Under the pieces are notes generated by a model. That model ran no database searches. It was not told where the DNA came from and saw only the letters and a program-made list of their open reading frames with translations. Source: Planctomycetota bacterium (GTDB taxonomy: Bacteria > Planctomycetota > GCA-002687715 > DRQF01). Taken from it: a stretch of 33,208 bases of DNA. Shown here piece after piece: positions 11,364-13,168 of the stretch. The stretch's first letter is position 1. The number at the start of each line of letters is the position of its first letter. The stretch spans positions 1 to 33,208 of the forward strand of contig DRQF01000107.1 in assembly GCA_011369445.1 (NCBI GenBank). Direction: 5' to 3'. A program made the translations under genes and the position numbers.

Positions 11364-11440
11364 GTACAGCCCCCCTCCATTCCGCCCTGAACACACTTTG
11401 AACACAGATCCCCGTTCCATCTGACCCACTGTCCGTGGTG

Positions 11441-11514
11441 GTCGGGTCGGCCAGGGGGATTGCTCCCCCCGGCCCTCCACAGATCCGGACGTGCGCAATT
11501 GACGCATCCGGCTG
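11441..11514 (-). mobile_element. Group II intron 3-prime end (domains V and VI), RT-less relic
   Basis: Read on the minus strand, 11513-11481 gives AGCCGGATGCG, a short loop, then CGCACGTCCGG and ATCT. This matches the domain V pattern of bacterial group II introns: AGC triad, paired CCGG arms, ACG bulge region. It is followed directly by a long hairpin (GGCC-GGGGG ... CCCCC-TGGCC, 11474-11449) and CCGACCCGAC, which looks like domain VI and the 3-prime splice end near 11441. No reverse transcriptase or maturase coding sequence exists upstream: only about 235 bp separate domain V from the next gene. A GTGCG, the usual 5-prime intron end, occurs on the minus strand at 11740-11736, which would define a 300-nt element, but domain I cannot be confirmed. 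The base of the domain V helix shows mismatches, so it may be dead. The surrounding gap 11364-11748 holds no gene. Confidence 0.6.
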
Positions 11515-11569
11515 CTACCGGGCACGAAACGTGACCCCCCTCCCGCCGGCTGGGAAGCCGGTGGAGGGT

Positions 11570-11601
11570 GCCGGGGGCAGGGCATATGCCCTGCCCCCGG
11601 C
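11570..11601. repeat. Perfect 32-bp palindrome
   Basis: GCCGGGGGCAGGGCAT (11570-11585) is followed at once by its exact reverse complement (11586-11601). Just before it, CCGGCT and AGCCGG (11545-11560) form a GGGA-capped hairpin with a further set of outer pairs. Both lie between the intron domain V and the next gene, where intron domain IV would be, so they may be the shortened domain IV of the element. They could equally be protein-binding or transcription-end structures. Confidence 0.85.
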
Positions 11602-11748
11602 GCGGAAAGTCACCTGGTTTCCGGACGTCTACCCCCCTGGTATTCTCCGGGTCTCTGAAACCTGTAATCTGGAGGAAATCGGAGGTGATCTCCCCCCCGG
11701 TCTCATTGTGGTTCACCGAATCGGGTCTATAGGAACGCACCGAATTTC

Positions 11749-13035
11749 ATGAAATGCACGCTCATACATTTCCTCCTATTCCTCCTCTTACCCAAAACTG
11801 GACTCGCACAAACTGCCGAGGAGTCTCTGTTCGAGGCTACTTTTCGGCAGTCGATCAAAATCCCGGCAAGGAAACAGACGAAACGAAAGCGGACGTTCCT
11901 GCTTAGTTACATCACTGTCCGAAGCGACAAAAGCGTATTTGTCGAACGGCGGGTCTATCTCGTTCACCCAATTCTGATTTGGAAGCGGCCAGTCCTTGCG
12001 GAGATCTACCTATATCGGGTTGACGACCTGGAAGATAAATGCCAAGCGACGATTGGACCACTCATATATGGATCGTTTGCGCCCAGGGCTCCGCTTCTTC
12101 CAAAGGAATTCAGGATCGAAAGGGATGCTGCCCGATTGACGCATCACTTGGGTGACGGCGCTGAGATCGATGTGATGCTCACACGATTGAGAAAGCCGGA
12201 TGGAGGACTGGTCGTCAAGGCGCGCCAAGTAGGCAAGTCAAGGTTGACGACCATGAAGACGGACCAGCGGCCATGGTCGTGTGGGCGATGGAGGCAGATG
12301 TACTCGATTGGCCCGATGGGGCGCCTGTCGAGCTACTCGGGTGCGCTGGAAGTCCATGACAGCTACGCGGTCGCCTTTTCCCAATTCGATCTGAGGCGAA
12401 AAGGTCGCCCGCGTTCACTTGACGGCCGTTTGGCTAAGGCGCGTTGGGAGGAACTTTGGCGATTCGCGACGGACGAGGTGCGCGTGTCGGAATTGAAGTA
12501 CCAGGAGAAGGAAGTTCACGACTTCTTGAGAGTGAAAGAGTCGGAAGAGGCTCAGAATGCCAGGAGAGAGCGCGATACTCAGGCGCGGATCAAGAGAATC
12601 CTCGGAAAGAAGTTCCCGATTGCTGGCCTGACGAAGATCAGCGACGGCAAGGCGTTTACGCTCCCAGCCTCCGGATGTGTCGCCGTACTGTGGTCCATCA
12701 AGTGTCCGGCCTGTCACAAGGAGCTGCGGTGGTTGACTGAGCAAGAGAGGAGTGATCATGGGAGACCGGGGGTGACGATCGTCGCTATCAATGCAATCGA
12801 TGCGATTCCCAAAACGAGGGAGCACGTGAATGCCCTCGGTTGGTCGTTCCCGGTGCTCAGTGGGAAGAAGGATATCTTCCAGTTTCTCGGCTTGGAATCC
12901 GTCCCGATCACAGTATGGATCCGGGCCGACGGAAGCGTCGGAGACTGTGTGCTCGGATATCGGAGGGGACGGGTGAAGTCGCTGATGAGAAAGGCTAGCG
13001 AGGCAGCCCACGTGACGCATGAGGAGGTGAAATGA
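11749..13035 (+). CDS. Secreted protein with C-terminal thioredoxin-like (TlpA-type) domain
   Basis: The 428-residue protein starts with a good signal peptide (MKCTLIHFLLFLLLPKTGLA, cleavage near Ala-Gln, residue 21). Residues about 25-270 are basic, of unknown fold and end in a charged helical stretch. Residues about 285-428 look like a TlpA/AhpC-type thioredoxin fold: PIAGLTKISDGKAFTL, then VAVLWSIKCPACHKELRWL with the redox pair Cys319-Pro-Ala-Cys322, and the cis-proline loop SVPI (Pro386) before a final strand and helix. It probably exchanges disulfides outside the cytoplasm. No good ribosome site lies before the ATG. The DNA is visibly AT-richer, with more Lys, Ile and AGG/ATA-type codons than its neighbours. 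Together with the tRNA and intron relic upstream this suggests recent acquisition. Confidence 0.75.
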   Translation: MKCTLIHFLLFLLLPKTGLAQTAEESLFEATFRQSIKIPARKQTKRKRTFLLSYITVRSDKSVFVERRVYLVHPILIWKRPVLAEIYLYRVDDLEDKCQATIGPLIYGSFAPRAPLLPKEFRIERDAARLTHHLGDGAEIDVMLTRLRKPDGGLVVKARQVGKSRLTTMKTDQRPWSCGRWRQMYSIGPMGRLSSYSGALEVHDSYAVAFSQFDLRRKGRPRSLDGRLAKARWEELWRFATDEVRVSELKYQEKEVHDFLRVKESEEAQNARRERDTQARIKRILGKKFPIAGLTKISDGKAFTLPASGCVAVLWSIKCPACHKELRWLTEQERSDHGRPGVTIVAINAIDAIPKTREHVNALGWSFPVLSGKKDIFQFLGLESVPITVWIRADGSVGDCVLGYRRGRVKSLMRKASEAAHVTHEEVK

Positions 13036-13068
13036 GGGTCTCCTCCACATTTTGTGGAGGAGAGCCTC
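13034..13068 (+). terminator. Strong stem-loop overlapping the stop of the thioredoxin-like gene
   Basis: TCTCCTCCACA (13039-13049) pairs perfectly with TGTGGAGGAGA (13053-13063) over a TTT loop. Four more pairs (GAGG/CCTC, 13034-13037 with 13065-13068) extend it after one mismatch. The stem starts at the TGA stop codon. No T-run follows, so it may stop transcription only weakly or protect the 3-prime end. Confidence 0.55.
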
Positions 13069-13168
13069 AAAGGGCAGGGCAATCTGGGACGATGGCGCCG
13101 AGGTTTGGGTTTCCAAGGGGGATCCCAATAACTTCGATGGGAACACCTGGACCCTTGACCTCATCTGA
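13064..13168 (+). pseudogene. Possible gene fragment (C-terminal remnant)
   Basis: The frame ending at the TGA 13166-13168 reads protein-like text, AIWDDGAEVWVSKGDPNNF followed by DGNTWTLDLI, with acidic residues and Trp placed as in a soluble beta domain. No start codon or ribosome site precedes it, and the preceding frame runs through the stem-loop. I suspect the tail of a lost gene, in line with other signs of rearrangement between the tRNA and 13220. Chance coding-like sequence is a real alternative. Confidence 0.2.

What the first reader, a model, noticed from the sequence alone, without database searches (positions are those of the whole stretch)
11441..11740. RT-less group II intron relic, possibly a very short 300-nt element
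Domain V and VI sequences are recognisable on the minus strand, ending CCGACCCGAC at 11441. A GTGCG intron-start motif lies at 11740-11736, nine bases from the next gene start. Between them sit a GNRA hairpin and a 32-bp palindrome but no open reading frame for a reverse transcriptase. It is either a heavily deleted intron or a minimal form mobilised in trans.
Basis: partly seen in the sequence, partly recalled or inferred. Interest (0 to 1): 0.55.

Follow-up and report, generated by a model that had tools for sequence, protein, structure and literature searches.

The report
Tail scrap of a dead intron
This is a broken-off 72-base tail of an ordinary bacterial group II intron, sitting against a scrap of an insertion sequence; it is most likely an inert fossil, not a miniature mobile intron.

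Summary
Rfam Intron_gpII matches below its cut-off (26.2 bits); a model built here from 14 related 3' ends, window excluded, matches 11440-11514 at 77.3 bits. Full-length relatives are about 2 kb, begin GTGCGCC and encode LtrA.

The 300-nt element is not real. Against a profile of seven full-length relatives the window matches only the last ~90 of 2054 positions. A domain I model finds nothing in the window and only chance (E 6.5) in the genome. GTGCG occurs about once per kb here.

Next to domain V, 11513-11581 is the outer end of an IS21-family insertion sequence: the tip recurs six more times in the genome and in a relative precedes istA and istB. It abuts domain V inside its first strand.

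So this is a 5'-truncated, presumably non-splicing relic beside an IS scrap. Such tails are common: 5 of 15 domain V loci examined had no reverse transcriptase upstream. Ordinary.

The parts
11441..11512 (-). Surviving 3' tail of a group II intron (72 nt): domain V minus its first one or two bases, linker and domain VI; last intron base is 11441
   Evidence: R1 model 77.3 bits, E 1.1e-13; RF00029 26.2 bits; full-length-intron profile matches only its last ~90 positions here, E 2.6e-16; relatives end at or near the same base
11460..11463 (-). GCAA (GNRA) loop at the tip of domain VI
   Evidence: minimum-free-energy fold
11513..11581 (+). Outer end (tip TGCTACCGG...) of an IS21-family insertion sequence, without transposase genes; first 38 bp shared with the C102 copy, 69 bp with the C269 copy
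   Evidence: pattern found 7 times in the genome and 0 times for the reversed control; 83% over 69 bp and 95% over 38 bp; in G292 a matching tip precedes istA and istB
11570..11601 (.). Perfect 32-bp palindrome, overlapping and continuing past the IS end
11582..11748 (.). Intergenic DNA of no recognised origin upstream of the gene at 11749; contains the chance GTGCG at 11740-11736 (-)
   Evidence: no match to full-length intron profile, 5' profile or domain I model

Best explanation
A dead 3' fragment of a normal LtrA-encoding group II intron. About 72 nt survive (domain V nearly complete, plus domain VI) and everything upstream (domains I-IV and the reverse transcriptase gene) is gone. The break coincides with the outer end of an IS21-family insertion sequence that is itself only a scrap. 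Most likely (inferred) an IS21 copy jumped into an intron just inside domain V, and later deletions removed the IS interior and the rest of the intron. Without domain I, its exon-binding sites, a 5' splice site and an intron-encoded protein, it should be unable to splice or move. Shown: identity of the 3' tail, no detectable domain I, identity of the IS end, their junction. Inferred: order of events and lack of function. The confidence given is for 'truncated 3' relic beside an IS21 end'; the IS-insertion history alone I put at about 0.6.
For: R1, built without the window, finds 11440-11514 (77.3 bits) and nothing else credible in the genome; 14 of the model's 25 pairs show compensatory change among relatives. 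Relatives with the same kind of 3' end carry ltrA directly upstream, and multi-copy G179 introns fix the ends at GTGCGCC... and ...CCTACCCCGAT. The profile of seven full-length introns matches the window only at positions 1953-2042 of 2054. Domain I model R2 matches 9 of the 10 RT-bearing loci (5 of them its training rows), none of the 5 RT-less loci except one chance-level match (E 8.1), not the window, and the whole genome only at E 6.5. IS21 tip; the bases outside the tip are unrelated between most copies.
Against: RF00029 stays below its curated cut-off. No second IS end or target duplication was identified, so an IS insertion as the cutting event is not proven. The domain V/VI fold is well kept: only 2 of 25 pairs are marked non-standard in the alignment to R1, a little better than expected of an old fossil. 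No relative offered a comparable empty site (outside this genome only the tRNA matched).
Confidence: 0.94

Rival explanations
1. A true minimal 300-nt group II intron running 11740 to 11441, spliced and mobilised in trans by another intron's reverse transcriptase.
For: Intact-looking domain V/VI and a GTGCG upstream; the 300 nt fold strongly, z -6.1, but that includes the 32-bp palindrome and domain VI.
Against: No similarity of 11518-11740 to intron 5' regions; an IS21 end occupies the place next to domain V; single copy; no intact group II RT found in the assembly; GTGCG is expected by chance.
Confidence: 0.02
2. A 5'-truncated copy made directly by incomplete reverse transcription of an intron, or cut by an ordinary deletion, which happened to end beside an IS21 end; no IS insertion into the intron.
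For: Only the 3' end survives, as 5' truncation would give; 5 of 15 domain V loci examined show no RT upstream.
Against: The break falls exactly on the IS tip, inside the first strand of domain V, which an IS insertion explains more simply.
Confidence: 0.3
3. One half of a split or circularly permuted group II ribozyme (domains V-VI first, domain I elsewhere).
For: Such permuted introns exist in bacteria (PMC8637638, abstract seen).
Against: No domain I of this family in the window on either strand and only E 6.5 in the genome. The assembly is about 90% complete, and a permuted class with a different domain I would be missed.
Confidence: 0.02
4. The tail has been kept as a small structured RNA, e.g. 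a 3' end or regulatory hairpin.
For: Fold largely intact.
Against: No conserved copy at this site in relatives was found; no direct evidence of expression is available.
Confidence: 0.03

Closest known systems
Bacterial group II introns with LtrA-type protein (relatives in G115, G179, Halomonas sp. PA16-9 plasmids)
   Same: Domain V/VI sequence and fold, and 3' end
   Different: Relatives are about 2 kb with domain I and an RT gene; here only 72 nt remain
Truncated group II intron copies (described as the majority of bacterial copies in PMC4028801, passages seen; remnant FRE652 in PMC5894124, passages seen)
   Same: Leftover of an intron
   Different: The published pathway stresses loss of the 3' end; here the 3' end is what is left
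IS21-family insertion sequences
   Same: Terminal TGTTACCGGTCA...GTGACCCCC motif as in front of istA/istB in G292
   Different: No transposase genes at this site

Membership tests
Group II intron (as origin of the fragment) | Domain V with AGC triad and 2-nt bulge, followed by domain VI with an unpaired A near the 3' end | tested here: met
   the triad, bulge and branch A are read from the sequence, their names recalled; the A of the triad may belong to the IS tip
Group II intron (as origin of the fragment) | 3' end in AY, shared with relatives | tested here: met
   ends CCCGAC at 11441 as many relatives do
Functional group II intron | Domain I with exon-binding sites and a GTGYG 5' end in family context | tested here: not met
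   GTGCG present but in non-family context
Functional group II intron | Encoded or trans-acting LtrA protein | tested here: not met
   none at site; in the assembly a broken ltrA on C269 and a defence-type RT on C16; assembly 89.93% complete
Functional group II intron | Splicing in vivo | not testable with these tools
   needs RT-PCR
IS21-family end | Terminal repeat beginning TG, found outside istA/istB | tested here: met
IS21-family (complete element) | istA and istB genes between two ends | tested here: not met
   no such gene seen beside the tip among the open frames; the protein at 11749-13035 has no Pfam match at 1e-3
Circularly permuted group II ribozyme | Domains V-VI followed downstream by domain I | tested here: inconclusive
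   no domain I of this family in the window; a different class would be missed

The most novel reading that the evidence does not exclude
The nearly intact domain V/VI has been retained as a functional structured RNA, or serves as the 3' half of a trans-acting ribozyme whose domain I is of an unrecognised class or lies in the missing tenth of the genome.
Probability: 0.03. Interest if true: 0.6.

Novelty: new member of a known kind. Interest (0 to 1): 0.08.

Why it matters
Little on its own. It shows how a chance GTGCG plus a real domain V can suggest a miniature intron, and that leftover intron 3' tails should be checked for adjoining IS ends before being called mini-introns.

Tried and rejected
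Mini-intron 11740-11441: rejected. Circularly permuted or split intron: no domain I of this family in the window, only E 6.5 in the genome. Other full-length copies in the same genome: none; the DNA search found only IS-tip, palindrome and chance matches besides itself. Other Rfam families: only tRNA passes its cut-off in the window; the miRNA and sRNA matches are below cut-off and look like the GC-rich hairpins. Empty-site comparison in relatives: only the tRNA matched outside the own genome. Exact IS-tip pattern in genome contigs: 0 matches. Papers on group II intron plus IS21 plus fragment: listing only, nothing opened. Intron class was not settled: the relative's protein is nearest to group II RT structures such as 7uim, 5hhl and GsI-IIC, which does not fix a class.

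Full report
What was claimed. A 300-nt RT-less group II intron on the minus strand, from GTGCG at 11740 to CCGACCCGAC at 11441.

The 3' end is real. Rfam RF00029 aligns end to end with 11441-11516 at 26.2 bits, below the curated 40; it is also the best of five RF00029 matches in the genome, none over the cut-off. PMC8919778 (passages seen) used a threshold of 24 bits for this model. A DNA search with 11401-11760 gave matches in 24 of 199 genomes including the own one and in 17 of 72,556 plasmid records. The strong ones outside the own genome lie between query 235 and 326, that is, domains V and VI, and many stop at query 320, which is 11441. Several lie beside annotated ltrA genes. I aligned 14 such ends without the window; 14 of 25 predicted pairs show compensatory change. 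The model R1 then found the window at 77.3 bits, one credible place in the own genome, and matches in 60 of 199 genomes including the own one.

The 5' end is not real. I examined 15 loci: 10 with RT sequence and 5 (L050, L052, L053, L060, L061) without RT signal at E 1e-3 in the roughly 2-3.5 kb fetched upstream. These 15 are not all the loci found; I fetched longer stretches only where the contig reached far enough upstream. Intact introns start GTGCGCC and a short hairpin; the three near-identical G179 copies diverge outside these ends. Here the sequence reads GTGCGTTCCTATAG. A profile of seven full-length introns matches the window once credibly, 11517-11426, at profile positions 1953-2042 of 2054 (E 2.6e-16), and a 5' profile gives nothing better than E 0.62, elsewhere in the window. 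On the claimed 300 nt alone the 5' profile reports no match. A model of a conserved 95-nt block that I take for part of domain I (R2, five sequences) finds 9 of the 10 RT-bearing loci (five were its training rows; L051, a more distant intron, is missed), none of the 5 RT-less ones except L060 at E 8.1, nothing in the window, and in the genome only E 6.5. GTGCG occurs 33 times on the minus strand.

What lies between. 11513-11581 matches contigs C269 (83% over 69 bp) and C102 (95% over 38 bp). A pattern of this tip, two mismatches allowed, occurs seven times in the genome and never in reversed control form; 4 of 392 genomes of the phylum have it, the own one included. In G292 the tip, with its internal repeat, stands in front of an open frame with rve and Mu-transposase C-terminal domains followed by an IstB (PF01695, E 2e-50). 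In the other two genomes with the tip, G008 and G258, no istA or istB was apparent among the open frames listed. In the own genome the C91 tip stands beside a shortened istB remnant. So I read this as the outer end of an IS21-family element. The sequences outside the tip differ among most copies (C146 and C91 share theirs), which fixes the tip at 11513. Domain V of relatives reads GAGCCGG; here it reads CAGCCGG, with CA belonging to the IS tip. The 32-bp palindrome at 11570-11601 overlaps the inner part of the IS piece. 11582-11748 has no identified origin.

Could it act? The genome's group II-type reverse transcriptase gene on C269 is in fragments (L017 2702-3314); the other RT, on C16, matches defence-type RT models. 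Splicing needs domain I and a 5' splice site (general knowledge of group II introns), which are missing. I conclude that it is inert; this is inference, not an assay.

Comparison with print. PMC4028801 (passages) says most bacterial group II intron copies are truncated and that GUGYG and AY are too short to define boundaries. PMC5894124 (passages) and PMC4496777 (abstract and opening of the introduction seen) describe intron decay by fragmentation with loss of the 3' end and persistence of remnants. Here the surviving part is the 3' end, which the 5 RT-less loci of the 15 also show. This is ordinary.

Noticed in passing
G000 C107:11513, C102:16068, C146:800, C269:1101, C19:61, C91:1850, C172:2701: Seven IS21-type tips in one genome; C107 and C269 share about 70 bp, C107 and C102 38 bp, C91 keeps a shortened istB; no complete istB was found.
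   Followed up: partly
L017 2702-3314 (C269): Fragmented ltrA-type reverse transcriptase gene, about 1.6 kb from an IS21 tip.
   Followed up: partly
L015 1360-2343 (C16): Uninterrupted 327-aa reverse transcriptase best matching PADLOC defence RT models (RT_X, E 3.6e-66).
   Followed up: partly
window 11570-11601: Perfect 32-bp palindrome without spacer, not palindromic in the C269 copy of the IS end; may have arisen by inverted duplication.
   Followed up: partly
window 11744-11755: 12-bp palindrome ATTTCATGAAAT over the start codon of the gene at 11749.
   Followed up: no
window 11749-13035: 428-aa protein with a signal-like start and a thioredoxin-like CPAC motif by eye, but no Pfam match at 1e-3.
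   Followed up: partly
window 13033-13069: 17-nt inverted repeat (94%, 3-nt loop) at the end of that gene, terminator-like.
   Followed up: no
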